Of a stretch of 64,000 bases of DNA, positions 8,243-55,126 are shown in pieces. Origin of the DNA: Cliona cf. orientalis (Eukaryota > Porifera > Demospongiae > Clionaida > Clionaidae); NCBI GenBank assembly GCA_963930775.1, contig OZ005692.1, positions 8,976,135 to 9,040,134 of the forward strand, read 5' to 3'. Both the position numbers and the translations under genes were made by a program. The notes beneath the pieces are model-generated. The model was not told the DNA's origin, made no database searches, and was given only the letters and a program-made list of their open reading frames with translations. Every line of letters starts with the position of its first letter. Position 1 is the stretch's first letter.

Positions 8243-8556
8243 CTACAATAAGAAAATATGGTATAAAAACTTAATTATAATATTATGAATGTGCAACTCA
8301 CATAATCCCATTGACATTAACTCTTCAGCGAGGTCTCCCATGTTGACTGAAGGAGACCTGAGAGCATCAGACAGGGAACTTAGAGCTGGCTCCTTCTTCA
8401 GCCACTGCTTCAGCATAGCTCTATAACAGTCTGTGCAAATGTCTCTGTTGTCCCTCTTGATAGCATCCAGTGTGTCTGGGGATATACCAAGGCCTAGACC
8501 CACATTGTACCACTGCGAGCGGGCACCCCATGTGGAAGTCTGGATTCTGTGCAAAT
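8243..8556 (-). CDS. Terminal death-domain exon of the ZU5 protein
   Basis: Acceptor TCACAG, entry in phase 1. It encodes a death-domain fold with the usual landmarks: W near the start (QTSTWGARSQWYNVGLGLGI), an AIKRDN segment, QWLKKEP before helix 5 and a final LAEELMSMGL helix. If read through it ends at a stop at 8243. A GTGAGT donor at 8301 would instead make a 255-base phase 1-1 module like the other death-domain exons. No following exon was found, so the terminal reading is preferred. Confidence 0.7.
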
Positions 8557-11500
8557 CTGTGATCTTCAGTTTATCTATTCAAAAGGAGAGAACATGATGA
8601 TTCAAGTAACATTACTAATATTTATGCAAACAAACCTGATCCACTTGATTCTGCATCAGTAAGCTGATTAGTCCGTGATAATGCTTTGGAATCCTCACTC
8701 TACATTAATTATGAGGTGTATCATTTTTATTAATGTCGATAATCATTGTACATCATAGAGCTAGTATAATATTATGCACAATCACAATGATTTTCAATCT
8801 CATAGTTGTTGCTGAGTTTTGAATAAGATAGACCCTACAACATTATACATTGGCGTAGGATCCAGGGAAGCTGGGGGCCCCAATATTCTATGCATGAAGT
8901 GCCTTTGTTCTCCAGAATATTAATGCAACACATACTTCTAAGGATTTCCAGGCCAGAATACCGTATAAGTAAAATGTGGCTCAATAGCTGCCAAATATAT
9001 TTAAACTTATGTTTTGGATCACCAGAGTATAATAATTATTTTGAATTGGTCTAAATTAATTTTGATGATCTTTGCCATTTTATTGGCCACTCAGAATTAA
9101 ATGTTTGTTTGAACTAACAAGATGGACTGTAAAATTTAAAGCATCCAATAACTGAGGTTACTACAGGCATAATATACCGACTCTGACTTTTAATAGGATT
9201 GTCTTAAAAATGTGTATTCTTAAGCTACACACATATATACCACACAGCACAAACCTCTAGATAGCTGAACACTACAACTTTACATAGAAACGCTGACACT
9301 TGTAATTAAAAAATTCTTTGATTAAATTATCATCCGCCCGACCGACCCTACTATTTCGTGGTCATGTTAGTTCATTATTCTGTGTGGCCTAATGTTATTA
9401 TGATATGGAGTTCATTCAAACTTATTCGATTTAAGACGTTTGAAACAGTTTCTGTCTTCGATAGTCCCAGGTTCTTTCTGGTTACCTCATCAATTCTTAT
9501 ACAAACAGTGTGAGTGTGGCGCAGTGTTTCAGAAATCATCAGACTAAGGGTTTTAGCACTTTCTGCCAGTAGCTTGCATGCTTCCAGGTCAGACGCTTCA
9601 TCTATAATAATATTGGCAACACGCATAAATGTAGTGATTCCATTAGCCTAAGGGTGTTCACACATAGCTAAAATATAATTACTAATCATAATCACCTCTT
9701 TGTCTTGAAGTTTCTCCTTGAGCAAGGACCGTCAACTGATGAGAAATAGTCCGCGTTTTTTCCATTACTCCATACACAGCCTGTAAAAACAATCACTTAA
9801 ATTATTGCAATGCTCTATTCTTATAGGGTAGCTATACTATTTCATTAGTAAAATTCTGCTTGGCAGTCATGAAAAAAATCAACTGATGCTATAAAGCATG
9901 CTCACATAAGAAGTAGTGGAAATCATAGAGCAGGAAGAAAAAATTTCTGGTGGTATGCCATAATAGCTACACACCATAGCTACTTAAATATTTAAGCTGA
10001 TATTGGCACCCTTTTCCAGCACCACTTGCATGCATAATAATATTATGCTGGAGCGCCCAGTCCACAGTGTCATTTGCACCACCTACCGTACTCATTATAC
10101 ATGCTCCAGCAGTAACTGTAGCAATTCGGGTCACTTCTTTGCCTTCTTTGGTTATATTTTCTGCTACTTCCTCAAAATCATCCTTGCATGTCCTCTCCTT
10201 GTGTACGCACACTTTCCTATATAGAAAGTGAAAACTATATTAGTTTTTACGAAAGATGATCCTTGTACAAATTAAAATATTCAGTTCAGACCTTATAAGC
10301 TGTGCCATCTTCCTCCACAAGCTTACTATATTTTTTGCTGATTCTACTTTCGATCCTAGACTTTCCTCATACTGAATGACAGCTTGATCTAATCTCTCAG
10401 CTGAATTCTGTATATAATAATATTATAACATTTATGACTGCATGCACTATAGTAAAATTATCAATACGACAGCCATACTTCCAGTTCAACTATGCTTTCT
10501 TCAAATTGATAGGTAGTTTTGAGATTAGGTGAAGTAGAGCTTGGTTCAGGTGGCTATATATACATGTATATATATATACGTACGGTAAACACAACGTCAT
10601 GATGAATCGCTCTATAAGCATAACAATATATATAATTATCATAATGTGTATACTGACCTTAATTAAATTCATTGTTTGACAATTTCCTCCCTGTACTCCT
10701 ATGGAGAGCTCTCCCATTGGCAAGCCACCTGAAAGCTCGACTTTCCCATCCAGTTTAATGGTGAATGACTTCTGTTGACGACCGTTCATCATAAAGAGTC
10801 CAGTTATTGGCTCACATTTTAGAGGCAGCAAGGCTTCATTAAGTTTAACTGAAAATTGTATCTTGTCGTGCCTTGAAACTTGCAAATCTAGCCGGTCACT
10901 GTCTGCAAGCACATATTTGTAGTTTTGAGGTATTGAGTCAGGTTCGTTACTATATGGACTGAAAAGCACAGCAATGCCAAACATGAGCTGGGAATTGAAT
11001 ACTGTTTCTTGAGACATAAACACTTGGCATCGTACTTCAATATTAAAGGAGCTATTGAATGGACTTTTCAAGCGAGAAATGAGATCTTTAAATTTTGTTA
11101 TTAGTGTGCTGAAGTGATTTATTTCGACTACAACAATGTATTGAGCATTCTCATCTTTGCATAAGCAATGATCAAGTAAGTTCCGTTTATTCGCAACGAC
11201 ATCAGAATGCCAAACCTCTAGCTGAGCATTTGGATTGTTCTCCATTACTTCAGCGTAATTAGGAATTGGTATGGAGATTGAGACATTCTCTGAGAATGTG
11301 ATGCCATGTGGTTCCAATCCTATGCATGATGATGCTAGGCAATTTCTGTCTTCTTCACAACAGACAGCTGGGCAATCATAAAGCATGGTAGCAGTGATTT
11401 CAACATCTTGGTTGGCATTAACACTACGTGGTGGTATTTGTACTTTGAACCCTGGAAGGTCAGAAATGGTGACTTCAGTGGGAGCAGTAATATCGACCAA

Positions 11501-14500
11501 TGGCTTCACTATCTTTGTTGACGATGGATAAGGTTTGCAGGATACTACAGCATAGAGGCAAAAATGTATCACTTCAAATGAAATTCGATCTTTGTGCACT
11601 TTACAATTGCACTCCGACCCCAATTCTCTCCATTCGGAGGTTTCTGTTTCAGCACATAATGGAATGATTTCATTCTTTGCATCCTTTTCTGATAGTTCAA
11701 TGTTCTTTAGTAATTCTATAATTGCTGGTTTATTAAGTGATGCCATCGCATTATCGGGAGTGATCCGTACAATAGGAGTAAGCTCGATTTCGTTACTTGC
11801 AATTTTGGGATGGATGTCAGTGTCAGTTACAGTTTCAATGGAGAAGTTTTGGTTGACGTCTTTGGATAGGTATACCAGGCAGTTAGAACTTTGTGCTACA
11901 CACATGTAATTTTCCTTGGATATGGGTATCATCTTATCTGAAATCAATGTATTAAACTATTGACAATTCAATTGCAATTAATAAACACCATATTTGCTCA
12001 AGGTAAAAGCTGGGAGAAACTATAGGCTCACAACTCAATGAAGCACTATAGTGCAAACCCTCAGTGCGTAAGCACTGCATGAGCAGTACTGCATGTCCAA
12101 CATTACTGCAAGATGCTCACATGGATTCTAGACTTCCTAGCACAATGTCAAGAGTCAAAGGAATAACTACAAGAATGCATATTGCATATAATTACGTAAT
12201 GTCTAGCAGTAGCACGTACATGTATGCAAGAGTAGATTAGCCATAAGAGTGTTGAACTACTGCAGGGCCCGTGTAAATGCGAAACGTCTGAATGACGTCA
12301 CGTTATCAGCCCATGTCACTGTACTATAGCTGTGTAAACAGATATGTACAGTCCTGCAGCCACGTGGTGCCAGCTGTACAAAAACTGCACAGCTGGCACC
12401 ACGTGGCTGCAGGACTGTACATATCTGTTTACACAGTGACATGGTGTTAAGTGGTTGATAAGCATACCAGGGCTGATAACGTGACGTCATTCAGACGTTT
12501 CGCGTTTACACGGGCCCTGTCAACACTCTTATGGCTAATCTACTCTTGATGTATGCAATGCCATGTCAGTAGTTATAGCAAGCTAAGAAGCTTCTCTGCC
12601 AGTGTGCTACGATCAGTGATGAACCAGTTATATTATTGGATCTATAAGTAATCACATATATTATTATACTTTTCGAGTTTTAAGAAGCCATCGCTGTCTA
12701 TTTATCTGTCAAAAGCTCACCAGGGAGTGAGGAAAGCGGCAGTGACCACCAAATAGCGCCACAACTCTTAATGAAGTGTTTTCAGGGAAGCCAAATGGTA
12801 AAAACATTGAAAACACCATAAAGAATCCTATAAAACAATGTGAAAATGAGGTAGCTAGGCAGCAGATTCTGCGGTAACAGATAGACAGATAAACATAATA
12901 CACAGAATGACTACTGTAACCCTGCGGCGCAGTGTACAGGTACATGTACGTGTGTCACAATGTGTTTGCATGTCTATGCATATAATATACATCCTTCTTT
13001 GCACATCCATTAATTTTATGGAATAATTGTGTTTCCTGTTTTTATGAGGTGGCAGTATAAAAAATTAGATTAGCACAGCAAATACGGACGTGTGTTTCCC
13101 CGCATGTTCCCAAACTTCAGTGTAATGTTATAAACAAAGAGACTCTCTGTCTACCACACTCAGCTATACACACATCAGTGACAGTGTCCCACCTCTCTCC
13201 ACTCCATTCATTCAAACCTGTTGAATTGGAGCTAGCTTCTTTCTCTCTTGGCATCTCTTCAGTAGATGTCTGCTCACTAGTCCTATCAAGTATAGATACT
13301 GCTGCTCCATCTTCATTGCCTGCTTCTACAAACAAATCAATTCAGTATATTGCATGTAGTTATTGGGGCGAGCCTGAGCGAGCCCCACATAGACGAGACA
13401 AACGCTCGCAATCCATATATTATTATGTATGGTACGTCCGTCACGTGTGAACCGCCATAGACATTGTACAGCGCTGCGCGGTATATTTCAAAAGGCCGCA
13501 TGAAAACATTTGTGTCAGCATAGTCAGGTGTTTTTTTGACACATTGAATTATTTCAGTGAATAAAGCCACTTTTTTTGGCCACTTTATTACGACTATACT
13601 TGTTCTTTGCTACTGTTTTAGTATGAGTTCTACTAACACTCAATCTGCTGAAGCGAAGAGAGAGAAAAGGCTTCAAAGAAGGCGCGAAAGAGAGAGAGCG
13701 CATCGTGCGCCGTACAGAAGCAAGCAGAAGGCTCCAAAGGAGGACACTCTGAGCGAGATAGAGCCTGTCATCAGCTCAATAGCGCAAGGACCAGCTAAGA
13801 ATACGATAAAGATAGACTAGACGTACTGCTCACTGATGACTCTGGTAAAACTTTGTATTGACTGTCAGTACTGAAGGATGGAAGGGGACTATCATGCAGC
13901 TGTAGACCTACAGGCCTACACGGCACTATGAGACTGTCTGTCATTGTTTGCTTGGATCTGTACCAGTAGTCTTCAAGATTTATCGTGCTATGGCTTTATT
14001 GGGGCGAGCCTGAGCGAGCCCCACATAAACGGTACAGCCATGCGCGAATTTTATATTACTAGTGGTGATGAAAATCATCTGTGCGGGGCGAGCCTTCGCA
14101 AAAGTCATAAGATTTCTGTGAAAGCACACAGGCATGCATGCGCACATGGGCTTGGTACCTCAATAGCTAGGCCTGAGAAGTTACCACGACAGTGAAAGTA
14201 TCACAAATTGCTAGTATAATAGCTATAGTCCAATAATGTTGATCACCTATACTATATTTATATAGTGGTCTACATGCCATGATCATGAGTGTAAGTACCC
14301 TGAGAGGATAAGCCTCCATGCAGTCATCTTCATGCTCAGAAAAGTGGAGTCTGCCAATGATGTTAATCGTGGACCTGAGCCTTGCCAGAGTGGTACAGCA
14401 CTCACCTTTCCAGTTTTATGCCTGGCCTGCACTCGAGTTGTCTCTCAGATCGATGGTGCAGTGCGGGTGTATACGCATGCGCATGACGACCATTACCTTA

Positions 14501-15115: not shown

Positions 15116-15146
<31 letters not shown>

Positions 15147-18100
15147 AACCGCTTCCTGTACCTCGTGTATTCGGGGCTCGCTCAGGATTATGTATGATTA
15201 CTAGTGGTGATGAAAATCATCTGTGCGGGGCGAGCCTTCGCCAAAGTAATAAGATTTCTTTGATAGCACACAGGTATGCCACGGTGCGCACAGGGGGTTG
15301 GTACCCCAATAGCTAGTTGGGCGGAGCCCAACCTTCGCGGGGAGAGGGGGAAGGTTGGGAATCACGCGTATACCCGGATTTGTTCCAACTGCAGAAAAAT
15401 TGCAGTCCAATCAGATTGCAGGATTCAAGTGGCTGTTAACCGCGAGCTTAGCGAGAAGCGTGAATCGGCTGGTTGGTGATGTCAACCAGCCGATTCACGC
15501 TTCTCGCTAAGCTCGTGGTTAACAGCCACTTGAATCCTGCAATCTGATTGGACTGCAATTTTTCTGCAGTTGGAACAAATCCGGGTATACGCGTGATTCC
15601 CAACCTTCCCCCTCTCCCTGCGAAGGTTGGGCTCCGCCCAACTACCCCAATAGCTAGGAATGAGAAGCTACCACAACTGTTACAGTGAAAGTATCACAGA
15701 TTGCTAGCATAATAGCTATGGCTAGTCCAATAATGTTGATAGTCTACATGCCATGACCATGAGTCCAAGTATCTGTAGCCAGGCCCTGAGGGGATAAGCC
15801 TCCATGCAGTCATCTTCATGCTCAGGAAAGTGGAGTCTACCAGTGATGTTAATCGTGGACCTCAGCCTTGCCAAAGTGGTACAGCACTCACCTTTCCAGT
15901 TTTATGCCTTGCCTACACTCGAGTTGTCTCTCAGATCAGATGGATCCATGCGCATGCGTATGACGACCATTACCTTACGCGTTCAAATTTTAACTCTCTC
16001 CTCACTGAAATGATCACCCCACAAACAATATATATACATATAAAACCGCTTCCTGTACCTCGTGTATTCGGGGCTCGCTCAGGCTCGCCCCGAATAATAT
16101 ACCCAGTGATCTCTATGGACATAAACGCGAAATATTCTATTGCGCATTCTCATGCCTGGGACACGGGCCGTAGATACGTCGTTCTAATTTAGCGAATTGC
16201 AAATTTACACTCGTGCTTGTGATCAAGCAAGCTACTGTACCGCGCCGTGGAAGGCTCCCAAGAAGGAGAGAGCGAGACAGAGCTCGTTATCAGCTCAACA
16301 GCGCAGGGACCAGCTATTAAAGAACACGATAAAGATAGACTAGACATGCTGCTCACTGATGATTCTGATAACAGAGGCAATCATAGTAAAATTTCAAGTT
16401 TTATTGACTGTCAGCACTGTAGGATGGAGGGGAATAGTCTATCATACAGCTGTAGATCTACAGGCCTACACGGTACTATGAGACTGTCTATCATTGTTTG
16501 CTTGGATCTGTATCAGTGGTCTTCAAATCTATCATGCTATGGCAGCTCAGCTAGACATTCAGAGGCTCAGCTCAGGCTCGCCCCAAACAGGCCCTGCATG
16601 ACACTAGTTAAAGTTTTTGAGTCGCAGCTACTGACAGAGGCTCAGCTCAGGCTCGCCCCAAACAGGCCCTGCATGACACTATAGTGTTTATTATATATGT
16701 ATGGTACGTCCGTCACGCGCGAACCGCCATAGACATTGTACAGCGCTGCGTGGTATATTTCAAAAGGCCGCATGAAAACATTTGCGTCAGCATAGTCACG
16801 TGTTTTTTTGACACATTGAATTATTTCAGTGAATAAAGCCACTTTTTTTGGCCACTTTATTACGACTATACTTGTTCTTTGCTACTGTTTTAGTATGAGT
16901 TCTACTAAGGCGAGGCAAACTAAATTCACAGTTTATCGTCACAGACTTTTCGATTTTGCATGCGGGCGGGCGGTCATTATTCAGATTTCAAACTAGTAAA
17001 AGAGTGCGAGAAATGCTAGGTTCGAACTCGCGATCGCCGAGACCACGCCCTTCAATTGCAGCGCTCGAGGGGGCGGGGCCAAAGTGCCATATAGTTGCTG
17101 CATACAATCTGAAATATGAAAATTTTGAGAAAATCTGAAAATCCATGCGGGCGGTGACGATAAACTGCGAATTCAGTTTGCCTGGCCTAACACTCAATCT
17201 GCTGAAGCGAAGAGAGAGAAAAGGCTTCAAAGAAGGCGCAAAAGAGAGAGAGCGCATCGTGCGCCGTACAGAAGCAAGCAGAAGGCTCCAAAGGAAGACA
17301 CTCTGAGCGAGATAGAGCCTGTCATCAGCTCAATAGCGCAAGGACCAGTTAAGAATACGATAAAGATGGACTAGACGTACTGCTCACTGATGACCCTGGT
17401 AAAACTTTGTATTGACTGTCGGTACTGAAGGATGGAAGGGGACTATCATGCAGCTGTAGACCTACAGGCCTACACGGCACTATGAGACTGTCTGTCATTG
17501 TTTGCTTGGATCTGTACCAGTAGTCTTCAAGATTTATTGTGCTATGGCTTTATTTAATAAAGTTTTTGAGTCGCAGCTACTGACAGAGGCTCAGCTCAGG
17601 CTCGCCCCAAACAGGCCCTGCATGTCACTAGTATAATAATCTCATTCAAACTGTGCATTTATTATGTGCCTTATTAACCCTCGCCGCAAAGCGTAGGCGG
17701 AGGGTTACTGCAATCGTTTGGCGATTTTTGTCCGTCCGTATGGTAAGGGTCGTCTGAGAGAAAGTACGCATCTGAGGGTTGCCAGGCATCAAGGAAGTTA
17801 AGTGTGCAGCTGTGGTTGCCATTCTGTGCCTTGCTGGTCAGTTGTCAATGGAGTAACAGTGTAAACAGGCAGTGGCTCTCAAGTGCATAATTGAGTTTAA
17901 GTAGTCACAGAGGCTTTCAGTTATTATAGTGACAGGGTATATATGTATACTATAGTAGATACATACTACCATTATGGTAGTATGTATCTAGTTCAATACT
18001 CCTTATATTGAGCAGGCATACACACTGAGATATGCTAGCTAGCTACTATAGATCTACATGTGCATGAGTCATGTATATACTTGTAGCGGCGAGGGTTTTG

Positions 18101-21100
18101 CACTCCTGTGCATTCATTTTAACAGGAATGGTGGGGTACTAGATGAGTAGAACAGTAAAATTTCCACATACTATTTGAATTTGGTAGCAGTTACCATAGC
18201 AACATAATTTTCAACCCCAAATTGTGGGATAGCTAGAGGTGATAGAGGGTCATTAGTAGGTTAACGGGTCAGTAGTGACTGCTATACCAAAATAGTAGCT
18301 ATCATAAGGCAATTGGAAAGAGACAATAGACAAACTCCACCAAGTGCTTAGCTATATAGACTTGACTCCACACTACACAGACTATCAGATATAGGTACAT
18401 GAGGTGGCTGAGTGGTGCCTTTGACACACCCACACACTGTAGTACATGTAGCAATATATACCAAAAGGCTTCTCTTCCTCTGCCTGTACATCACTAGAAG
18501 ACTCTTTATTCTCAGCTGAACCTACAGATATAAATTTAGTGCAGATGACTTAGATTAGTGCTGATAGCTAGAAAGGATATCCCTACCAAGGGCTATAAGT
18601 CCTTGCTACCACACAGTGCACATATACAAGAAATCAAGTACAGTTTGTAACGAGGAGCTAGCAATAAATACCCACGTGCATGCTCAAGGGGTAAGGCAAT
18701 TAGTTCGGTCTATCTGTTGATACTTTATCAGCAATAGATCACAATTATGTAATACTTGAGGCAGTTAGTGTGGTATTGTCCAGCTAATTATCATCAGTAC
18801 ACAAACCACATACCAGAAACATGTTTCCCATATAGCTGCTTTAGCACACTGTGATCAGTGAGTCTATGAGTCCTGTAGAGGGCCCAGGCTACCAGCTTCC
18901 AGCTTGGAGCAGGATGATTCTGCAGCCATTCCTCCAGCATGGACTCTTTCCCTGTCATCACATCCAGCCTGGACTGAGGTACATCAAGCCACCGGCCTAG
19001 CCCCTTCCACTCATGATCAGCTATACCTTGCAGAGCTGAGAGTAGATGAGGTACTGTCAGCGTTGAATCTGGACAAAGCAAATCATGAAGATAAATAAAA
19101 CAACATGAGGGTTACAATAAATAATACACATGATTTGCTTTGATGTCTTGTAAACTATTAGAATAAAAATTATCGTTTGTATTGTATATTACTAGCTATG
19201 TATTACTGCTGCACCTTTTATGATGTATATTTCAAATCAATAACAATAACTTAGTCCAGCAAAAATAAAAATGAATATACATGACCTTGAGAGCTAGCCA
19301 ACTGATGAGACCATTACCGCTATATGCAGCATCAGTGTGTAGACTAAAGTGGGTACAGTACTAGTGAGTTTAGATTCAAGGCTCATAGTTATCCACACTA
19401 CTATAGATCATTGAAGTGAGTCACCTGAACACACCTCATCAGGAGTGCTCCTGACCTCACTGAATTATCATAATAACAAGTATGTTTGATGTCACAATCA
19501 AGGGATAATGTGACTAAACACTACTAACAGCATACTATGTACAATCGAGTGCCAGTTAGTACAATGCATATGCATAAATGAAAGCAGCACCGAACTTTGC
19601 TGTTATGGTGTAGACCACACCCCTCACTGCAGGCCAAGAGCAGCTGCTCATACACACTGTGTAATGGCGACATTCTCACTCTGCTTGAACGTCGAATCTA
19701 TCACCAGACCATGACAAAGAGCAGACATCACCTCTCGCTTCGCTCGAAGCTCGGTGGTCTGCTGAGCAGGCCTGTCGAAATGCGCGGCGCTTGCGCCGCT
19801 CGCTCAAGCTCGAGAATGCATCTCTATGGCCCCTAGGTCCTGACAACCTTATTTGTGCACACGGCACAACAATTCTGGCCAATCGTGTGTCTTCTGAACT
19901 TGTAGGAGAGCGCATCTTTTATGCCCTCCAGGTTAGGACACAGACTATAGAAGAAAACTGTCGTCTGAAAAATATTTTCGTTGTATATAGTATAATAATT
20001 TATACCACTACTATCCAGAGGAGGTTAATTAAGCAACTAGAGCTCTGTGGAGCACATACCCCACGCGCACATTGCGCAATCTATAGATCTGCTTTTGTGT
20101 GTATGGGGAAACAAAATTAATATTGGATATATAGAAGTGCTGTTTGGTTGTATCAAGCTTAAGGGCTTATTATAGACTCCATAAGCCCTCAGTTATTTAT
20201 AGGCTCCTGGTGATATCAGCCAAAAAACCACTGACTCTCTCTCTGCACCAAGTCCAGGTCCTACAGATGTTTACGTAAAAGTAGGAAAATTGTCATGATT
20301 CTATCATGGGGAGATTTTACGTGACTTCTACCATGATTTAATCAAGGGAGGATTTTATGTCACATGTAAAGTATTCCCAGTGTTTACATTCGTTACTTCA
20401 TATGGGAAGATTGTACGTAAGGTCAAAGTTCTTACGTAAAATCTTGCCATGTAATCATATAGTACTGATTTACCAACACAATCATCAGGGAGTGATTTAT
20501 GTGTGACCTCTGACCTCACGTAAAATCTTCCCACGTAATACTGACTTACCAACAAAACAATCAGGGGGTGATTTATGTATGACCTCTGACCTCACGTAAA
20601 ATCTGCCCAGATATACCGTATAGCTCCAAATTTTCGTGGCACAATATTTTCGTGAATTTCGTGATTTGACTTCTGATCACGAAAATTTTACTCACGAATT
20701 ATTGTGGGCGTGGTTACGTTTTGTGTGCACATGCGCATCGCAAGCGCGATCGTGCGTACGTGATACTAGTCAGCTAGTGCACGAGTGAACTGTCTGAAAC
20801 GAAGTATTGAATCGCTACTAGCAATGTACAGACTCTGTACGCGTGCTTTCAGAAAGTGAATAAAAGTTGCCTACCAAATCCGCAAGGACCTTTGTCCAAA
20901 CAACATACTTCGTCTTGTATCGAATCCGCCAACAACCACGTTGAAGAGATGGTCAAACAAAGGCGCTAAAGACAGAAAGAGAGGCCCGTATAAGTCTTGT
21001 CTAGTTTCTTTCTCTTCATATTACCTGCACTGTACTAGCCCAACGCCGAGCCACGTGCAATTGTGGGCGGAGCGACAACGTAAATTGTCCGCACGGGTGC

Positions 21101-23965
21101 TGCGGCGCGGCGGTAATCACGAAAAAATGTGGCGATCACGAAATTTTTATCACGAAAATTTTCAATTATGGGATTTTCAGCAATTTCACGAAAATTTTGA
21201 ACCACGAAAATTTGGAGCTATACGGTATGTATGCGGGCTGATAATACTGCAATAATACACTGCTCATACAGATGGACTTTAACCTCACGTAAAACCTTCC
21301 CAGATATAAACAATGAATGTATTGTGGGATGATATTAATGCCAACAAAAAATATGTGCTATAAGTGAGCCATGTGTAGGCTGATCTTTGACCCCAGGATT
21401 CCCTTTAGGAAGACATACACACCATACCTTCATCAGGCACATTAATACTTTTATTTTAAGTTTGCAAATGCAACAATGATCCGACTTATGCAAGGGGTGG
21501 TCACTACTACAACTACTGTACTGACACAGGATCTACCTGCATAGACAAACCGTTATCAGGTCGACCACCATTGGTATTTCCAGGCAGCCTTTGTAGCTTC
21601 TTACAGCTCACGATATTTTGGTTATACTGACTTTTAGGATCTACCCGCATAGACAAACCCTCGAAACTCTTGAGACTAACCCTGCCCTACAGACCCTGGA
21701 GACTAACCCTGACAAACGATCTTACCTGAAATCCAAACCCCTGACCCCTCACGGAGGAGATCCATAGTGGTGAGGTAGGGATGACTTTTAGGAAGATCCT
21801 AAACGTCAGTCTACCCGATATTTTTTACCCGCAATGATGATTGCAGAAACAGAAATGTGTACTTCGTAATAGGGCGGTGCGCGCGTTTCCAGTCCATCTG
21901 AAAGATAATGTATAGTCCCTGGTATAATGTATTGAGTGGGCACTGTCAATATACTATAGGCGTGGTTACGAAGGCTAACAATAAGGCACTATTTGTGATG
22001 CTCATGGACTATGTCCCTCGATTCGAAGCACACTGAAGCCCGTTTTTCGCCAAATGCAACTTATTCACTAGTCGCTCAGATGCCTAGATCACGAGATATG
22101 GCGATTTTTGTGCAATTGACAACGACAACAACGACAACGATGACAAGACCGATTACTTTACCCCATGTGCATGTGCACGGGGTAATTATTCTAGTCATTA
22201 GAATATGCTTGCAATAATACTATACACCCGTGTACACAATCCAGGTCAACCCACTGAGTCAGCAAGAACAGTACATTAATATATGGCACACAGCCATAAT
22301 CAAAACTATATGATATTGGTGACATTTTTTACTAACATCCTCCGATTGCTAGTCAGGTAACAAAATTAATTATTATGTAAGTACATATCATGTCACCCCA
22401 GCACACAGCTTACCCTCCTCCCTTTTGGTGTATCTTTTTGCTGCCTGGAGTGCACTTTCCTCACAGCAGTAGTATAAGGATCCAGCTATAACTGCCCAGG
22501 AGATTCCCGGGATGAACTGCACTATGTATTCTGGCAATGACGCAAGTTTTTGTGACTGGAACTGCCCTCTGATCTCTTTCTCCTTAACGACCGGTACACC
22601 AAGGTGCACATGCAGACTGTGATCACCTCCTGGAGGGTTGTCATACCAGTTTCTCTCCAACAAGCCAAGGATTTTATCTACATGCTCCACAGTGAGGTTG
22701 GGGTCTGCATTGGAAAAACATACATGCCCTTTGTTCACTGGAGTATACAAAGGTATACTATACCATAAATAACTGTTTATCAATGATTGTGGTGATCTTT
22801 CTATTGTATTGCGTGTGAGAAGCTTTCGTTACATTTTGGAATCAATAATAATATAATATTATTTGATGGTTTATAATTCGCATAACATGTATGTATGGAA
22901 TGATCTTCAGAAAAGCATGCGTTTTTCATACAGATTAAGTACAATAATTATATCAATACCCAACAATTTTATACTCATTAGAGAGTAATCTCACACCACA
23001 TGGAATGGTACATGTACCGTATGGCCGGAAATTTTCGAGGGATCCAATTTTCGCGGAAGGGCCATCTTCAAAGATTTTGCGATCTAATTTTCGCGGATGG
23101 ACGTTTCAGGGTTGCTCCACCCACAATATTCGTCCGGCTCCACCTCTTACTGTACGCGCGCCACAGCTCAGGAACCGGCCGAAAAAACAGCAAGCGATCG
23201 ATCGATCGTATACTTGCACTTAGCAGAAATCGAGAAATGGCACGAGAGTAGCATATGATCGAGGCTAGAGACATTTGTGCAGAAGAAGCTCAACAATAAT
23301 GAACTGGTGTGAAGTAAACCAGCTGTTAGATCAATCCAGCTGAGCAGAGGCATGCACCACGATGGCCACGCCCCCCTGTTATCGCACGTGCCAGCGTGCG
23401 TTTAGGCTTTTTATTTCGTGGATTTAATTTTCGTGAATCGCCAGTCAACCGCGAAAACCACGAAAATTGGCTCCCTCGAAAATTTCCGGCCATACGGTAT
23501 ATGTCTTTGATGTGCATACCTGTCACAGGTTCAGAGTAATCCTGTATTCGCTTTGCCACTTGGTGTTCCTTTATCCAGTGAAGAGCACTGATGATACACC
23601 TCCAGCTGGATCTAGGATGTAGGGTGAGGGCGTAGAGAATCACAGCCCTCAGTCGATCAGAATCTGTGGAATGTTGGCTCCTTATTTCCTGCCTTTTTTG
23701 ATATGGCACATATAACCATACTCCAATGTCATCCCATCTTCTCTCTATCCCTCTCAGAGCCGCCATGATATTCTCCACAGTGAGGGCTGGTACTAATGGG
23801 AAGAAATAACACACTCCATTAAACAATGCTGTGTGTGTACACTATCACTGCAATAATCATGATGTACACCATTCTCCCTCAACATAAATTACACATGTAC
23901 TACTGCTTGCAATAAATATCACTAACTATCATGTACCACAGTGCTATATTTCAGGATTTCATTGT

Positions 23966-24000
<35 letters not shown>

Positions 24001-24081
24001 GAACCTCTGATCATCTATAGTGTACCATAATCAAGAGGTCTGAGGGGAAATAATTGTCCACAGTAGAAAGGTTCTAGCTAG

Positions 24082-24134
<53 letters not shown>

Positions 24135-27100
24135 TTTCTTGCTCCCTCCCTCAGCCATTGTAGGATGATCTCTACTGGGACCAGCTGTTGTCTCAGTTGT
24201 TAACTCTTTCTGGATAAGGATGGTTATAATATTATTATATTATTTATAATAAACATGGTGTCTTACTTTGGCTGAGAGGTAGTAATCTCCACATATTACA
24301 CTAACTACGTGTAGTGCAAGCAGCTCTTGTTCTTGCTGTGTATAGAGGGGGAAAATTTGTTCTGTTAAGAATTGTGGAAGTTGGAAGGTTAGCTGCAAGC
24401 ATCCTGGTGCAATATGGCACAATTTGAGATTTGTGATGCGCAGAATCTTGCAAAAGTCAGCTTCAAGTAGTTTTAACTGATTGAGCGTGCATCCCTCGTA
24501 GTGGTCATCGAGTTTTATGCTAATGTTAGTACTGAATTTACCACTTGCTTTCCCAAGCTCTGGTGGACACTCAAAGACTCTTCTCTTTGCGTATTCATTG
24601 AATTCTGCTTCATACTGCTGTAGTTTTTGCTTGTCGTTTGGTGTACCATGTGCTCCTACCAAGAATCTGAACAGTTTGTAGTTATAGAAGGAACAGTAAT
24701 CCAGGACGATAAGTCTAACACTATGTATGCTGGCTCTTGTGAGATCTAAGCTGTTCAGTTCCTCTCTCAGTAGTGGTTGGTTTTCCCCCTTGTACACTGG
24801 AGTAAAGGCACCAAATGCTTTCAGAGTAGCGACTACTTCTTCGACAGATATTCCTTGCTCTTTGATAGATTGGAAAAAAGCATTGAACATTACACCAAAT
24901 GCTCCAGCGATGTCAACGGATTCCGAGTACAGTCGTGTTTGTAGCTGTTCATAATCGTCAGAGCTCATATCTTTGCTTTGGAGGAATGGAAACATCCTCT
25001 CAGCTGGATTGAGGCTAATTGATGAGCCCTCTGTGGTACATGGTGCACTTATAGAAGTAGCTGCATGTTGTCATGAAAGTGCAGGCACACTATAATAATT
25101 ACCGTAATGCAAGTGCCCACTCCCAGGTGAGCGCTAATGTATACGTTGACATTTCAATGTTACAAACAAATGAAAGTTATATCCTGATAAGCGCTCCCAC
25201 AGTCCAAATCTAGTCTCGTCCCCAGACCCCACCCCCAAAAGGAGGAAAGTGCCTGGTACACATCGAGAGCTTTCTTGGGTGCACAGGATGCAGCTCATTA
25301 TGTGACTGTCCTGACAACGCATCGTTTTGGCATAGCAATACATCAACCACTCTCACAAACAGCAATAGCTGGCTATAGCACTGTATCACATGATAATCAC
25401 ATATAAGCCACATGGCATGACTCTGATTGGCGCAAAAGAATTCAGAAACACCAAGTCAGCAAGCCAAACAAAGCGCCCGATGTGTAACAGACCCTTTCCT
25501 CCTTTTGGCAGGGTCAGGGGGAAGGCAGAAAATTATGGTGAGGCTAAAGTGGCAGCATATTAATGTGCAAGGGGTACGGGGTCCTAGCATCCCCTTGTCC
25601 CAGAATATATATTTCTGAGGTGGACATTATTAAACTCAGTTCATGGTCGCAAAGATCCCTAAGACCAGGACTATTATAATACATGTAGTTGCATGTGCAT
25701 GTGGTTGCTCGAGCGTCACTTAGCAGAACACGCAGTAGGTGTGGTTCATAGTTTCAGTATTGCCAGAATGCCCAACTAGCACATACCTACGAAAATCAGA
25801 CCAACATTACTCAGGTCATAGCCTGAGCAGCCAGAGCGGCTTTCCTGGCCCTGTTTGGGGATGGGGTCTAGCCAAAACGTACCGTATAGCCGGAAATATT
25901 GGTGGGAATTAATTATAAATTTGGCGGTTGAGCCCCAAATCGCTATTACAAGAATATTGGCGGATTTAAATTTGGCGGTTCGGTACAGGATCGCCATACA
26001 TATATATGCGAGCAGGAAATTTTGGCAGATTTTAATTTGGCGGTTGTAATATAGACCGCCAAACCGCCAAATTTTCCGGCTATACGGAGTTATGTTTAAG
26101 CACCCACGGGCGCTTACCCAGGACACTACAATAACGCACAATGTCATGGTAATTAATAACCATGCGCTTATGCACTTATGTATGATATACGTACCTCCTA
26201 ATACATCCTTTAATTCATCTGCTAGCTGACCAAGATGTGCCTCCTGAAGAGCTTGAATTACAGTACTCCACGTTCGTGGTGTGCGCAGTCCTTCCTTACC
26301 ACTTAGCCACTCAATGAAGACATTTCGACATGCACTGAGTTGGTTTTGTTGGCTTTCAGTCCGAATTTGTGAAATTGTATTTCCATCAAAGTGTAGCCGG
26401 GTAGCGATCCCCTCCCACTTGCTTGCTGCTCTTTCGAACACTCGGATTACCTTTTGGTTACCACTTATCAGATCAAGTTCATGAAACTTGGGACACCTAA
26501 GCAGAGCTACATTACAGGTTGCAAAGATACAAGTTAATATTTAAATTTTGGCTAACTACATACAGTAGCGGTCAAAAAAACGTTGCCGTTTCTGCTAGCG
26601 CTGCCGTCCGTACCGTTTGTACGCTTGCAAAACGGAGCAGGAACAGATTGCAAATGCAGACTAGTACCATCCGTTCCGTTACCCCGCGCGCATGCGCAAG
26701 GGGTAAAGCAATCGTCTGTCGTTGTTGTTGTCGTCGTCAGCACAAAAATCGCCAGATCTCGAGTTCTAGGCGTCTGTGGGTACTGTAAGCATAACCAATC
26801 GATAGAAATCGGTGAAAAACTAGTTTATACGGGCTTCGAATTACTCAAAAGGGCTTACTAGTGCTACAAATCGTGCATTCTCTGTTCAACGTGCCTGTGG
26901 TTTATCGACCACACCCACTCTTTTAGCATGCTGATGCGACTGCGCATACTCAAGCTCAGTGTTGGAAAGGGTCGTCATGTCATAAAACAGCTATGCCGCA
27001 TGTTATGATGCAAATGCGATCTAACGCAAATGCGATCTATCAACACTTAGAAAAAATCGACGGGGAAAAAATCAAAGTGTACGGCAAGATTTGAACCCGC

Positions 27101-27402
27101 TCTATTCCGTCCCATACATAAGAGCCCAACCACTCGGCCACCACCGTTGTTGCTGCTGGCAGCCGTTATTTCAACTATTTTATAGACAAACCCTACACAA
27201 CCCAGCCCCCCCCCCCCACACACACACACTAACTCTGCTAACCATTCACAACCCAGCCCCAGACCTCCCAGCCCCTCCAGTCCACGTATACGTAAACCCT
27301 AGAGACTAACCCTGCTAACCATTCGCAACCCATCCCCAGACCTCCCAGCCCCTCCCACATTAACCCTGCTAACCATTCGCAACCCATCCCCTGACCTCCC
27401 AG

Positions 27403-27433
<31 letters not shown>

Positions 27434-28352
27434 ATCCATCCATATCGTCCAGCAATCGCGACGGCGTACATACCAGCGTATCACGAATGGGTCGGGATCG
27501 CATTTGCGTCGTTACACCGCAGAGTATTGCAGTACTACGCTACAGTGGCTACAGAACGCGCGGGGTATGTGCTCTACAGAGCTCTAGTTTCGTGCAGTTG
27601 AGTACTGGGCTAGGCAGCAAGCTCTGTACTGTGGTATGGGTGCTAGTACTACTGTCTAACCCGTAGGGCGGGCTACCTAACCATAGTTTATAGTAGGTCT
27701 TATCGTTCAAGCAGTGACGGGATGTGTTTATCTCGTTAGAGGTCAAAATTTGAAGGGCTCAGAAGCAAAGTGGGCTAACTCCGAACTTAATGTGGGGAAT
27801 TGTCTAAAAAGCTCAAAAATGCACTAAAAACCATACATTGTACTCTACCAAGTTGCCCAAATTTTCAAAATATTGAACTTTCTATAGCTCATGAAACACA
27901 TTTTAAACATGTTTTCAAGATTCGGGGGGCTAAGTCAACATTTGTGGGTTAACCCACTTTGCTTCTGAGCCCTTCTTTAATAACTGGTGGCCATCTACAA
28001 GCCACAGAAAACCAATTTCCACACCCAGGCTACAACTAGCTTTTGATAGTGCCTAGTGGGCCAGCCCAGTTCGTACTGAAATAGGAAACGAATATAGCAA
28101 TCAATTTGCTAGCCCGTTCTATACCGTGGAACGGAACGAACGGATGGCAACAGAACGGGCGTTGCACATCATACAAACAATCGGTACGAACGGCAGCGGA
28201 ATCGGCAACCGCTACTGTATAATTATACATTATGTACAAGTATGTTTGATATCACAATCATGGGATAATGTCACAAATATGCATGAGTTACCAACAGCAT
28301 GCTCAGTACATGCCAGCTTTGACTCACCTTTCTTTCTCCCTCCCTCAGCCAT
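8243..28352 (-). CDS. Multi-death-domain / ZU5 protein, 16 coding exons, 1,432 residues
   Basis: Likely intracellular adaptor or scaffold acting by homotypic death-domain contacts; the role is inferred from the domains. Coding exons in transcript order: 28352-28328, 26506-26195, 25060-24267, 24209-24134, 23792-23520, 22704-22414, 19068-18814, 18521-18462, 13325-13218, 11937-10658, 10407-10292, 10216-10087, 9780-9696, 9601-9486, 8699-8636, 8556-8243. Joined, they give one uninterrupted frame. Order by residue: death domain (9-112), unnamed domain (113-377), start-like linker (378-402), death domains (403-493, 494-590, 591-675), acidic linkers (676-731), ZU5 (about 885-985), UPA-like (about 1010-1155), helical part (1159-1307), linker, death domain (1329-1413). 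Domain exons are mostly phase 1-1. The 57-base intron at 24266-24210 decides whether this is one gene or two, the first stopping at 24240 and the second starting at 24158. The start at 28352 is inferred from the MAEGGRKK exon. Confidence 0.65.
8636..8699 (-). CDS. Ser/Asp/Glu-rich linker exon before the last death domain
   Basis: A 64-base exon between TAG and GTTTGT, phase 0 in and phase 1 out. It encodes SEDSKALSRTNQLTDAESSG and one further serine. It links the helical region to the last death domain and keeps the frame on both sides. It is short and low-complexity, so it rests on splice sites and frame only. Confidence 0.55.
9486..10407 (-). CDS. Helical-region exons between ZU5/UPA and the last death domain
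   Basis: Four exons (10407-10292, 10216-10087, 9780-9696, 9601-9486) follow the ZU5 exon with matching phases (0-2, 2-0, 0-1, 1-0). They encode mainly helical, charged sequence: a heptad-like NSAERLDQAVIQYEESLGSK start, then KEGKEVTRIATVTAGACIMS, which recalls the amphipathic core of apolipoprotein-L-like proteins, then EASDLEACKLLAESAKTLSL. The apolipoprotein-L comparison is weak. In the 9601 exon an acceptor inside an ATTATTATAG tract is chosen because the nearer CCCTTAG breaks the frame. Confidence 0.55.
10658..11937 (-). CDS. ZU5 and UPA-like domain exon
   Basis: A long exon of 1,280 bases, acceptor TTTCAG and donor AAG-GTCAGT, phase 1 in and phase 0 out. The central part carries ZU5 hallmarks: a DLPGFKVQIPPRSV strand pair, then EITATMLYD, CIGLEPHGITFSENVSISIP, and a closing INHFSTLITK strand. 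About 150 residues after it make a beta-rich UPA-like segment. ZU5-UPA-death-domain order is known from UNC5, PIDD and ankyrins. The first 150 residues (from DKMIPISKENYMC) match nothing I recognise. Confidence 0.75.
12222..12557. mobile_element. Long palindromic element (fold-back) of about 330 bp
   Basis: The arms GAGTAGATTAGCCATAAGAG and its inverse complement bound a near-perfect palindrome. Inner blocks GGGCCCGTGTAAA, TGACGTCACGTTATCAGCCC and GCAGCCACGTGGTGCCAGCTG all recur inverted, with a centre near 12383. It lies in an intron of the death-domain gene and has no coding potential. Confidence 0.85.
13218..13325 (-). CDS. Acidic linker exon (phase 1-1) upstream of ZU5
   Basis: A 108-base exon, acceptor TTTGTAG and donor G-GTTTGA, phase 1 in and out. 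It encodes a Glu/Ser/Thr-rich linker starting EAGNEDGAAVSILDR. Its GTTTGA donor is weak but resembles that of the linker at 8636. It fits in frame between the linker at 18462-18521 and the ZU5 exon, across a 4.6-kb intron filled by the nested repeat block at 13.4-18.1 kb. Confidence 0.5.
13430..14005. repeat. Dispersed repeat R1, copy 1 (carries an RRRERERAHRA-coding remnant)
   Basis: This unit is repeated nearly base for base at 16700-17560 and in diverged form at 16240-16550. The plus strand encodes AEAKREKRLQRRRERERAHR followed by a short acidic tail and a stop at 13820. Arg/Glu-rich runs of this kind occur near the N-termini of Helitron-type and other transposon proteins. That comparison is by motif only. 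No helicase or replication-initiator domain is present. Confidence 0.6.
14050..16100. repeat. Three tandem units of about 560-570 bp, the third interrupted
   Basis: The units begin near 14060, 14636 and 15200. Each contains GATGAAAATCATCTGTGCGG, then CTCCATGCAGTCATCTTCAT, CTTACCTTTCCAGTTTTATG-like and ATATATA-tract segments. Each ends with the palindromic GGGGCTCGCTCAGGCTCGCCCC or a remnant of it. The third unit is split by the palindrome at 15315-15643. No open reading frame is conserved among the units. Confidence 0.85.
15315..15643. mobile_element. 329-bp palindrome inserted in a tandem unit, 12-bp target duplication
   Basis: Near-perfect inverted arms of about 160 bases start AGTTGGGCGGAGCCC and meet at GGTTGGTGATGTCAACC. 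The 12 bases ACCCCAATAGCT flank both sides (15303-15314 and 15644-15655). The unfilled equivalent in the second tandem unit, near 14730, has this sequence once with one change. This directly shows insertion. There is no coding capacity. Confidence 0.9.
16240..17635. repeat. Dispersed repeat R1, copies 2 and 3
   Basis: A diverged copy (16240-16550) is followed by a close copy (16700-17560) of the 13430-14005 unit. Both are joined by direct repeats of GAGGCTCAGCTCAGGCTCGC near 16560, 16640 and 17587. The close copy is interrupted by the MITE at 16909-17187. Only remnant coding sequence is present. Confidence 0.8.
16909..17187. mobile_element. PIF/Harbinger-like MITE with TAA target duplication
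   Basis: The ends GGCGAGGCAAACT and (inverted) GGCCAGGCAAACT bound a 279-bp element, with TTTATCGTCAC also inverted near both ends. TAA flanks both sides, and the empty site is visible at 13630-13636 in repeat copy 1 (CTACTAACACTC). A 3-base TWA duplication is the PIF/Harbinger signature. The interior includes GGTTCGAACTCGCGATC, which resembles a tRNA T-arm (B box). Confidence 0.8.
17676..18096. mobile_element. MITE with AACCCTCGCCGC ends
   Basis: The terminal AACCCTCGCCGC is inverted at the right as GCGGCGAGGGTT. An inner TACTACCATAATGGTAGTATG palindrome-like segment lies near 17960-17990. It is non-coding and lies in the same 4.6-kb intron of the death-domain gene. Confidence 0.75.
18462..18521 (-). 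CDS. Acidic linker exon (phase 1-1)
   Basis: A 60-base exon (acceptor CTGTAG, donor G-GTATAT) encodes the Glu/Ser-rich linker SAENKESSSDVQAEEEKPF. It sits in frame after the fourth death domain. Evidence is limited to splice sites, phase and composition. Confidence 0.55.
18814..19068 (-). CDS. Fourth death-domain exon (phase 1-1)
   Basis: A 255-base exon between GTCCAG and G-GTATGT encodes one death-domain module. It opens with LTVPHLLSALQGIADHEWKG, then GRWLDVPQSRLDVM, EEWLQNHPAPSWKLVAWAL and a final helix. The WKGLGRWLDVP and WLQNHPAPSWK segments match the helix 1-2 and helix 4-5 patterns of the family. It opens with the same TLTV entry as the 22.7 and 23.8 kb modules, which fits tandem exon duplication. 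Confidence 0.8.
20260..20612. repeat. Degenerate tandem repeat containing CTCACGTAAAATCTTCCCA
   Basis: About three to four imperfect units of roughly 95-100 bp carry (T)CACGTAAAATCTTCCCA and GGGTGATTTATGTATGACC. Another unit continues at 21270-21310, so the MITE at 20613-21227 was inserted into this array. It is intronic and non-coding. Confidence 0.65.
20613..21227. mobile_element. TIR element with ATACCGTATAGCTCC ends
   Basis: The left end ATACCGTATAGCTCCAAATT is inverted at the right end, with TCGTGGCACAATATTTTCGTG-like inner repeats and TA at the borders. The middle is CpG-richer and encodes nothing recognisable. It shares its outermost bases with the elements at 6989, 23015 and 25880. 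Confidence 0.85.
22010..22200. repeat. Fragment of the repeat family also seen at 26.68-26.88 kb
   Basis: The inverse complement of 26690-26775 matches this stretch. Shared blocks are GGCGATTTTTGTGC, a GACAACGACAAC run and TTTACCCC...GGGGTAA. It is intronic, with no coding function inferred. Confidence 0.65.
22414..22704 (-). CDS. Third death-domain exon (phase 1-1)
   Basis: A 291-base exon between AATGCAG and G-GTAAGC. It opens PNLTVEHVDKILGLLERNWY, then VHLGVPVVKEKEIRGQFQS, and ends with VIAGSLYYCCEESALQAAKR. The TVEHV opening matches TVENI of the preceding module. A loop insertion (NPPGGDHS) lengthens the first part. Some core positions are unusual, for example no clear helix-5 tryptophan in the standard place, so it is a diverged death-fold module. 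Confidence 0.7.
23015..23499. mobile_element. TIR element with TACCGTATGGCCGGAAATTT ends
   Basis: About 30 bases at the left end (TACCGTATGGCCGGAAATTT, then TCGAGGG) are inverted at 23470-23499. Inner sub-terminal TTTTCGCGG repeats are present. It is inserted in the intron between the second and third death-domain exons. It has no transposase, so it is a non-autonomous element. Confidence 0.85.
23520..23792 (-). CDS. Second death-domain exon (phase 1-1)
   Basis: A 273-base exon between CCATTAG and G-GTATGC. It encodes PALTVENIMAALRGIERRWD, then DIGVWLYVPYQKRQEI, LHPRSSWRCIISALHWI and a closing helix. The RRWDDIGVWLYVP and HPRSSWRCII patterns are typical of helices 1-2 and 4-5. It follows the start-like linker exon at 24134-24209 in correct phase. 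Confidence 0.8.
23967..24133. repeat. G34 homopolymer and (CT)n tract beside a splice donor
   Basis: A run of about 34 G is followed by a (CT)n array (24084-24131) that directly abuts the donor of the linker exon. On the gene's strand the intron thus begins GTGAGAGAGAGAG. The same arrangement is found in the duplicate at 402-585. Confidence 0.85.
24134..24209 (-). CDS. Internal linker exon that resembles a first exon (TMAEGGSKK)
   Basis: A 76-base exon, acceptor TATCCAG and donor G-GTGAGA, phase 0 in and phase 1 out. It encodes KELTTETTAGPSRDHPTMAE and then GGSKK. Its 3' half is the same as the start-codon exons at 586-643 and 28328-28385. Here it joins the unnamed-domain exon, 57 bases upstream, to the second death domain. 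It may be a former first exon captured by fusion of tandem genes. Alternatively it is still a start (ATG at 24158) of a separate downstream gene. Confidence 0.6.
24267..25060 (-). CDS. Conserved unnamed domain downstream of the first death domain
   Basis: A 794-base exon, acceptor ATGCAG and donor GTAAGA. A short Ser/Thr linker leads into about 235 residues beginning SDDYEQLQTRLYSESVDIAG. Recognisable blocks are KAFGAF...YKGENQPLLREEL, LDYCSFYNYKLFRFLV, NEYAKRRVFECPPELG, a KLDDHYEGCT strand and LKLCHIAPGCLQLTFQLPQF. I recall similar sequence next to death domains in sponge and cnidarian proteins, without a family name. No catalytic motif is visible. An unspliced reading would stop at 24240. 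Confidence 0.7.
25125..25610. repeat. Intronic inverted repeat with CCAAAAGGAGGAAAG arms
   Basis: CCAAAAGGAGGAAAGTGCCTGGTACACATCG near 25235-25265 recurs inverted near 25470-25510, with related purine-rich sequence outside both arms. Terminal ends are not clear, so it is probably an old TIR element. It lies in the intron between the first death domain and the unnamed domain. Confidence 0.55.
25880..26087. mobile_element. Short TIR element with TACCGTATAGCCGGAAA ends
   Basis: CCGTATAGCCGGAAA is inverted at 26073-26087. GGCGG(T/A)T and AATTTGGCGG sub-repeats alternate in the interior. It is 208 bases long and non-coding, in the same terminal family group as 20613 and 23015. Confidence 0.8.
26195..26506 (-). 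CDS. First death-domain exon (phase 1-1)
   Basis: A 312-base exon between TGTAG and G-GTACGT. It encodes LLRCPKFHELDLISGNQKVI, then ERAASKWEGIATRLHFDGNT, EWLSGKEGLRTPRTWSTVIQ and LADELKDVLG. KWEGIATRL, the basic-acidic middle and RTWSTVIQALQ are classic death-domain helix 1-2 and 5 features. It is the most canonical of the five modules. Confidence 0.85.
27079..27146 (-). repeat. tRNA-like sequence, probably SINE-derived
   Basis: The minus strand reads GGTGGCCGAGTGGTTGGG (A-box-like D-arm of Ser/Leu tRNA type), an anticodon-arm-like middle and GCGGGTTCAAATCTTGCCG (T-arm with B box). The acceptor stem is not closed, so it is not a functional tRNA. It is a likely SINE head or tRNA pseudogene inside the element at 26561-28220. 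Confidence 0.55.
27190..27435. repeat. Minisatellite of about 50-55 bp units with a C homopolymer
   Basis: Three or more units carry AACCCTGCTAACCATTCGCA followed by ACCCATCCCCAGACCTCCCA, ending in a run of about 30 C (27402-27432). Related GACTAACCCTG text also occurs near 21690-21720. Confidence 0.75.
28232..28320. repeat. Intron segment shared with 19478-19555
   Basis: CAAGTATGTTTGAT(A/G)TCACAATCA followed by GGGATAATGT is shared between this intron and the intron upstream of the fourth death-domain exon. It is a footprint of duplication between death-domain modules that included intron sequence. Confidence 0.65.

Positions 28353-32109: not shown

Positions 32110-55126
<23,017 letters not shown>

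What the first reader, a model, noticed from the sequence alone, without database searches (positions are those of the whole stretch)
8243..28352. One open frame over 16 exons joins five death domains, an unnamed domain and ZU5
Splice sites chosen by consensus give matching phases at every junction from 28352 to 8243, with no stop in 4,299 bases. Four death domains on one chain, followed by ZU5-UPA-death domain, is an architecture I do not recognise from described proteins such as PIDD, UNC5 or ankyrins. A scaffold nucleating multi-protein assembly is an inference.
Basis: partly seen in the sequence, partly recalled or inferred. Interest (0 to 1): 0.78.

Follow-up and report, generated by a model that had tools for sequence, protein, structure and literature searches.

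The report
Patchwork death-domain and TRADD-like immune gene
A stretch of an animal genome, probably a sponge's, carries what looks like a patchwork gene in which a cell-death module was spliced into the start of a second cell-death gene and joined to a possibly self-cutting module, a new combination within an already described class of sponge immune-type proteins.

Summary
The open 16-exon frame is real: 1,438 codons, all 15 introns GT-AG. Its meaning needs correcting. Two domains are Pfam Death domains; exons 5-7 are a death-like family with moderate profile support; ZU5 is confirmed; UPA is positional only. The unnamed domain ends in a TRADD-like N-terminal domain: PF20694 hits 16 of 25 chosen family members at E up to 1 (best 6.1e-7), though not the window's own copy; the genome gave 150 scored matches to the domain. 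Phase matching alone is weak evidence, because exons 2 and 5-9 are all phase 1-1. It looks partly duplicated when a Death/TRADD-N block landed in an older gene with three death-like exons. The joint to ZU5 has no comparative support. The ZU5 tail resembles PIDD/ankyrin and carries an HFS motif, so self-cleavage is plausible but untested. Death/TRADD-N proteins with variable tails are published for a sponge (PMC8195603), so this is a new variant of a known kind.

The parts
28313..28435 (-). 5' flank and first coding exon (ATG at 28352, MAEGGRKK) of the MAEGG family
   Evidence: Shares at least 78 nt upstream of the ATG with 7 of 7 MAEGG copies other than 24158, and about 660 nt with four of them; homology ends about 15 nt into the intron.
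26195..26506 (-). exon 2, Death domain 1
   Evidence: Pfam Death E 1.8e-7; 84% identical to the C13 copy and 50-57% to the C-terminal domains of five ROC-COR paralogues; dN/dS against C13 0.083/0.246.
   Evidence: 150 scored genomic matches, some two to a copy; PF20694 in 16 of 25 chosen members at E up to 1; 24 of 24 genomic PF20694 hits lie inside these matches; dN/dS against C13 0.064/0.319.
24297..24482 (-). approximate TRADD-like N region, with the Gly-Cys turn at 24404-24399
   Evidence: Placed from paralogue matches; the Gly is invariant and followed by Ser or Cys in 25 of 25 rows.
24134..24209 (-). exon 4, chimeric: tail of the Death/TRADD-N gene joined to a second MAEGG start exon (ATG at 24158)
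   Evidence: Donor, short intron and acceptor also present in the C13 paralogue; shares only 16-17 nt upstream of the ATG with each of the other 8 copies; 45 of 46 nt identical to 28368-28323.
23520..23792 (-). exon 5, death-like domain 2
   Evidence: 70-87% identical to 6 paralogues; no Pfam match alone; family profile against Death profile, hhalign 74% probability.
22414..22704 (-). exon 6, death-like domain 3
   Evidence: 74-79% identical to 6 paralogues; no relevant Pfam match.
18814..19068 (-). exon 7, death-like domain 4
   Evidence: 76-84% identical to 6 paralogues; matches the death-like domain of L038 at E 5e-5; single-sequence model with six helices, mean pLDDT 64.6; no Pfam match.
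18462..18521 (-). exon 8, predicted linker, unsupported
   Evidence: GT-AG and phase only; no match in loci L001-L038.
13218..13325 (-). exon 9, predicted linker, unsupported
   Evidence: GT-AG and phase only; no match in loci L001-L038.
10658..11937 (-). exon 10, ZU5-like part 1, Pfam ZU5, then a UPA-like part by position
   Evidence: Pfam ZU5 E 2.8e-9; family profile matches ankyrin-2 at whole-sequence E 3.5e-5, best single stretch only 0.25; 11 further matches in the genome, at 10 places.
11108..11116 (-). HFS motif at the end of the second ZU5-like part, PIDD-type cleavage motif
   Evidence: HFS in 9 of 11 loci including the window; letters checked.
11558..11566 (-). HFC, the degenerate counterpart at the end of the first ZU5-like part
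   Evidence: HFS in 7 of 11 loci; the window has Cys in place of Ser.
8636..10407 (-). exons 11-15, helical or coiled linker, no known domain
   Evidence: GT-AG and phase; no Pfam match near a cut-off.
8243..8574 (-). exon 16, C-terminal Death domain 5
   Evidence: Pfam Death E 3.4e-5; 35% identical to the domain downstream of ankyrin repeats and ZU5 in L038.

Best explanation
This is an intracellular, immune- or apoptosis-type scaffold gene assembled by exon shuffling. Step 1 (supported by sequence, mechanism inferred): an older gene of the MAEGG family, with a 5' flank, a MAEGG start exon and three death-like exons, received a Death plus TRADD-N block near its first exon. That duplicated about 46 nt around the first exon, so one copy (28352) keeps the upstream side and the other (24158) keeps the downstream side as part of a chimeric in-frame exon. 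Step 2 (supported): homology to the paralogues ends after exon 7, and the ROC-COR GTPase found further on in 5 of 7 other start-exon genes is absent here. Step 3 (predicted from splice signals only): transcripts continue into a PIDD/ankyrin-like ZU5 module with a C-terminal Death domain. Step 4 (inferred): the death-like domains recruit partners by like-with-like contacts, TRADD-N acts as a switch between the constant front and the variable tail, and the ZU5 module cuts itself after HF at the HFS site, leaving a UPA-like, coil and Death tail that can be released on activation, as in PIDD.
For: Open frame. Donor, short intron and acceptor after exon 3 also in the C13 paralogue, which by eye continues into a coiled coil. 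The start-exon halves are complementary: 28352 shares at least 78 nt upstream with 7 of 7 other copies, 24158 only 16-17 nt with each of 8. DNA homology of the Death/TRADD-N block to C13, intron edges included, at 83% and 87%. dN/dS about 0.34 and 0.20 for Death 1 and the TRADD-N exon against C13. Homology to the paralogues from 24174 to about 18693, introns included. ROC-COR in 5 of 7 other start-exon genes, best E 0.75 in the window. Paralogue L038 with ankyrin repeats, ZU5 and a death-like domain. HFS in 9 of 11 loci at the second site. PIDD is cut at HF/S after each ZU5 (PMC3210808, passages). The TRADD-N switch idea and ZU5 autoproteolysis in TRADD-N proteins are proposals of PMC8195603 (passages).
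Against: No transcript data. Exons 2 and 5-9 are all phase 1-1, so phase agreement proves little. Exons 8 and 9 have no match in the loci searched, and nothing comparative joins exon 7 to exon 10. The stretch between them holds many repeats. One relative of exon 3 (L008) stops soon after the domain, so some family members may end there. The window's own TRADD-N exon has no Pfam match, and its single-sequence model is useless (pLDDT 38). The TRADD-N and death-like profiles found no TRADD or death-domain chain in the PDB. UPA is unmatched. The first cleavage motif is HFC, not HFS. Death-like 2 has dN/dS near 1 (median 0.96 of 21 pairs), which could mean relaxed selection.
Confidence: 0.45

Rival explanations
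1. Two tandem genes: MAEGG-Death-TRADD-N ends at 24240, and a second gene starts at the ATG at 24158, like its paralogues elsewhere.
For: In the 7 copies outside this gene, MAEGG is followed by an exon-5-type exon and looks like a gene start; the exon-3 frame reaches a stop at 24240 if not spliced; one relative, L008, stops soon after the domain.
Against: Only 81 bases separate that stop from the ATG; the flank shared by the other 8 copies is missing here beyond 16-17 nt; the C13 paralogue appears to splice on from the same donor.
Confidence: 0.25
2. The front (MAEGG, Death, TRADD-N, three death-like domains) and the ZU5-coil-Death tail are separate genes, split between 18.8 and 11.9 kb.
For: A ZU5-module relative occurs with another front end, ankyrin repeats, in L038; exons 8 and 9 have no match in loci L001-L038; homology to the paralogues stops near 18693.
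Against: By eye in the list of open frames, no other front-end domain stands upstream of exon 10 on this strand; exon 10 opens at an acceptor in a compatible phase. Both points are weak.
Confidence: 0.25
3. A recombinant locus that is not functional: open by chance or recently decayed.
For: Repeat-rich surroundings; a duplicated 3' fragment of the neighbouring bHLH gene at 3443-5118; dN/dS near 1 in death-like 2.
Against: No stop in 1,438 codons; dN/dS 0.20 and 0.34 for the TRADD-N and Death exons against C13, though one functional branch could produce that.
Confidence: 0.1

Closest known systems
Sponge Death plus TRADD-N proteins, NCOA6 clade (PMC8195603, passages read)
   Same: N-terminal unit with death-like domain(s), then TRADD-N, then a variable tail, as the paper describes for most architecture types of its 357 Amphimedon TRADD-N proteins.
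   Different: Here a second start exon and three more death-like domains follow TRADD-N, and the predicted tail is ZU5-coil-Death.
PIDD
   Same: Two ZU5-like parts, an HF-type motif after each, C-terminal Death domain.
   Different: No leucine-rich repeats; first motif is HFC; Death, TRADD-N and death-like domains in front.
Ankyrins
   Same: The ZU5 family profile matches ankyrin-2; paralogue L038 has ankyrin repeats, ZU5 and a death-like domain.
   Different: The window gene model has no ankyrin repeats.
ROC-COR (ROCO-type) genes of the same genome
   Same: Same start exon, same three death-like exons, related Death domain.
   Different: ROC-COR absent from the window.

Membership tests
Sponge Death/TRADD-N proteins | N-terminal Death-superfamily domain | tested here: met
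   Exon 2 Pfam Death E 1.8e-7.
Sponge Death/TRADD-N proteins | TRADD-N domain | tested here: inconclusive
   Met for the family: PF20694 in 16 of 25 members at E up to 1, best 6.1e-7; 24 of 24 genomic hits at E up to 0.01 lie inside family matches. The window's own copy alone has no Pfam match at E up to 1.
Sponge Death/TRADD-N proteins | tiny residue then Ser (sometimes Cys) between strands 2 and 3 | tested here: met
   Gly-Cys at 24404-24399; Gly followed by Ser or Cys in 25 of 25 rows. Strand positions rest on the description in PMC8195603 and a poor model.
Sponge Death/TRADD-N proteins | lineage-specific expansion with variable tails | tested here: met
   150 scored matches of 234 candidates; coiled coil by eye in C13, other context here. 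Only two tails were looked at closely.
PIDD | HF/S after each of two ZU5 domains | tested here: not met
   Second site HFS, first site HFC.
PIDD | leucine-rich repeats in front | tested here: not met
   No LRR in the Pfam scan of eight model segments.
PIDD | UPA domain | tested here: inconclusive
   No Pfam UPA match in 12 rows at E up to 0.1; the position fits.
PIDD | self-cleavage | not testable with these tools
   Needs protein.
Ankyrin | ankyrin repeats, ZU5 pair, UPA, Death | tested here: not met
   No ankyrin repeats in the model segments; present in paralogue L038.
ROCO | ROC-COR GTPase module | tested here: not met
   tblastn of the L037 ROC-COR exon against the window: best E 0.75.
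UNC5 | extracellular and transmembrane parts | not tested
   No membrane-helix search was run.

The most novel reading that the evidence does not exclude
A gene caught in the act of domain shuffling: a Death/TRADD-N block inserted at a start exon with a roughly 46-nt duplication, giving a chimeric in-frame exon, promoter capture and two interchangeable start exons, so that alternative splicing of symmetric phase-1 exons could make either the old protein with three death-like domains or the full chain; with the ROC-COR engine replaced by a self-cleaving ZU5 module.
Probability: 0.3. Interest if true: 0.65.

Novelty: new variant of a known kind. Interest (0 to 1): 0.45.

Why it matters
Sponge and other marine invertebrate genomes are reported to hold large expansions of death-domain and TRADD-N genes with many one-off architectures (PMC8195603, passages), and how such variety arises is open; that paper proposes transposition or reverse transcription. 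This locus shows a candidate DNA-level join with identifiable edges, a source-like relative on another chromosome (C13) and unfused relatives nearby, so the route can be tested. It also predicts a PIDD-like self-cleavage step in an animal far from vertebrates.

Tried and rejected
Phase agreement as proof of one transcript was rejected, because exons 2 and 5-9 are all phase 1-1. A first alignment of the start-exon copies mixed strands, because the loci were not oriented; it was replaced and is not used. A ROC-COR remnant in the window was sought and not found. The stretch 12899-12682, which also lies after the death-like array in L037, looked like a shared intron but is a dispersed repeat (40 scored matches of 192 candidates, the window included). 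Window 27979-27750, matching near two paralogues, has inverted ends by eye and was set aside as a likely mobile repeat. The structure model of exon 3 was too poor to use. A search of the PDB with the TRADD-N family found no TRADD chain at E up to 10, the death-like family found no death domain at E up to 1, and the window's exon-10 protein found nothing at E up to 1. The TRADD-N and death-like family profiles are unrelated to each other. Clustering of variable sites in the death-like exons was not significant (permutation p 0.27, 0.09, 0.07), so no claim of a specificity patch is made. A second place with the TRADD-N family followed by ZU5 (C11) holds a different, single ZU5 after a coiled coil, and its Death hit looks by eye like the start of another gene. 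Co-location of TRADD-N family and ZU5 within 30 kb, downstream on the same strand, is 4 places including the window, against 0.87 expected (86 of 2000 shuffles reach 4), which is suggestive only; that test used the 150 scored of 234 TRADD-N-family candidates and 75 ZU5 places (65 of 65 plus 10 of the 12, leaving out the window's own and a second fragment), with some contig lengths approximate. Rows chosen: the 25 are 25 of the 150 matches, picked for spread; the 21 leave out one exon-5 copy that was cut by the edge of L025.

Full report
Where it lies. No name was available; I infer an animal, probably a demosponge, from introns, a HIF-type bHLH exon and the large Death/TRADD-N expansion, which PMC8195603 reports for the sponge Amphimedon.

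The observation. Pfam confirms Death in exons 2 and 16 and ZU5 in exon 10, and finds nothing near a curated cut-off for exons 3, 5, 6, 7 and the coil exons.

Exons 5-7. These three exons are related to each other, and each recurs in 6 paralogues at 70-87% identity. In 21 members, Pfam Death appears in 3 at E up to 1 (best 0.0053). The family profile aligns with the profile of this gene family's clear Death domains at 74% probability, E 2.8e-5 for that single comparison. A single-sequence model of exon 7 has six helices at moderate confidence. The Death profile used itself finds PIDD, FADD, FAS, RIPK1 and ankyrin death domains in the PDB, best PIDD at 1.1e-7; the exon 5-7 profile finds none. 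I call exons 5-7 death-like, not proven. The exon-5 type has 870 first-look candidates in the genome, of which the 150 scored have E of 2.3e-6 or better.

The unnamed domain. A search of the genome returned 150 scored matches out of 234 candidates, a few of them two pieces of one copy. An alignment of 25 of them shows an invariant glycine followed by Ser or Cys, as PMC8195603 describes for TRADD-N. Pfam TRADD-like_N (PF20694) matches 16 of the 25 at E up to 1, best 6.1e-7, but not the window's own copy. Searching the genome with PF20694 gave 24 hits at E up to 0.01, and by comparing coordinates all 24 lie inside matches; in that call's 14 control genomes the family rang once, below its cut-off. 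The helical first half has no family name here.

In the C13 relative (86% identical) the same donor is followed by a short intron, an acceptor and more exon, then by eye a coiled coil. Donor-like sites also follow the domain in other relatives viewed, but one of the eight, L008, stops soon after it. So exon 3 is not usually the last exon, though it may be in some relatives. The MAEGG start exon occurs 9 times in the genome, 3 of them in this window. The copy at 28352 shares at least 78 nt of upstream flank with 7 of 7 copies other than 24158, while 24158 shares only 16-17 nt with each of the other 8. Conversely 28352 shares only about 15 nt of its intron with the paralogues, while 24158 matches them downstream through exons and introns to about 18693. 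The two copies agree at 45 of 46 positions. This is what an insertion near a start exon with a short duplication would leave; the mechanism is inferred.

What the paralogues are. Seven other genes carry this start exon followed by an exon-5-type exon; six of them have all three death-like exons. In 5 of the 7 a ROC-COR exon follows, and then a Death domain related to exon 2. One (L031) shows no ROC-COR in the roughly 30 kb fetched. The other (L034) keeps only exon 5 at high identity, with more distant death-like exons and a distant ROC-like exon in L035. The window has no ROC-COR.

The tail. Exon 10 has 11 further matches at 10 places in the genome. Pfam ZU5 matches 9 of 12 rows of its family. 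Its family profile matches ankyrin structures (best whole-sequence E 3.5e-5, best single stretch 0.25). One relative, L038, has ankyrin repeats and ZU5 in one open frame and a death-like domain downstream. HFS follows the first ZU5-like part in 7 of 11 loci and the second in 9 of 11; the window has HFC and HFS. PMC3210808 (passages) says PIDD is cut at HF/S after each ZU5. UPA is inferred from position only. Nothing comparative joins exon 7 to exon 10.

Selection. Against C13, Death 1 has dN 0.083 and dS 0.246, and the TRADD-N exon dN 0.064 and dS 0.319. For the death-like exons, median dN/dS over 21 pairs each was 0.96, 0.65 and 0.67. Variable sites did not cluster significantly.

What is known. 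PMC8195603 was read as passages only. It reports 357 TRADD-N proteins in Amphimedon, most architecture types having an N-terminal unit of 1-3 death-like domains, TRADD-N and a variable tail; it reports UPA-ZU5 and FIIND fusions in the DEDD2 clade, and predicts autoproteolysis. PMC12909245 (passages) mentions NACHT-Zu5 in early animals.

On rereading, I corrected the gap between stop and ATG to 81 bases, the 150 'copies' to 150 matches, the paralogue counts, and added L008 and the weak single-stretch ankyrin score.

Verdict. A real, informative patchwork locus; a new variant within a known class. The full 16-exon transcript is plausible but unproven: the front half has comparative support, the joint to the ZU5 tail does not.

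Noticed in passing
window 3443-5118 and 31735-33431: The 3' exons of the neighbouring gene are duplicated at 90.6% identity over 1,731 bp, each copy about 3 kb upstream (minus strand) of a MAEGG start exon, pointing to segmental tandem duplication.
   Followed up: partly
window 54480-55022, minus strand: bHLH exon matching the HIF1A model (E 4.9e-12); by eye the gene seems to run down to about 32.1 kb.
   Followed up: partly
window 57777-62926, plus strand: Ankyrin repeats and, further on, a membrane-helix-like open frame (by eye); resembles a TRPV channel by recall only.
   Followed up: no
L022, L025, L026, L029, L037: A family of genes with three death-like exons, a ROC-COR exon and a Death domain on chromosomes C4 and C8.
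   Followed up: partly
L019 and L020: Kinase and Kelch exons next to the Death/TRADD-N relative on C13; Pfam run on one kinase and one Kelch frame, the rest by eye.
   Followed up: partly
L021 and L022: A gag-pol-like retroelement frame sits between the death-like exons and the ROC-COR exon of one paralogue (by eye).
   Followed up: no
G000:C3, about 8.3-11.4 Mb and 2.9-3.8 Mb: Many exons like exon 5 on one chromosome among the 150 scored of 870 candidates.
   Followed up: no
window 15314-15644, 12227-12548 and 1977-2216: Long inverted repeats, likely mobile elements.
   Followed up: no
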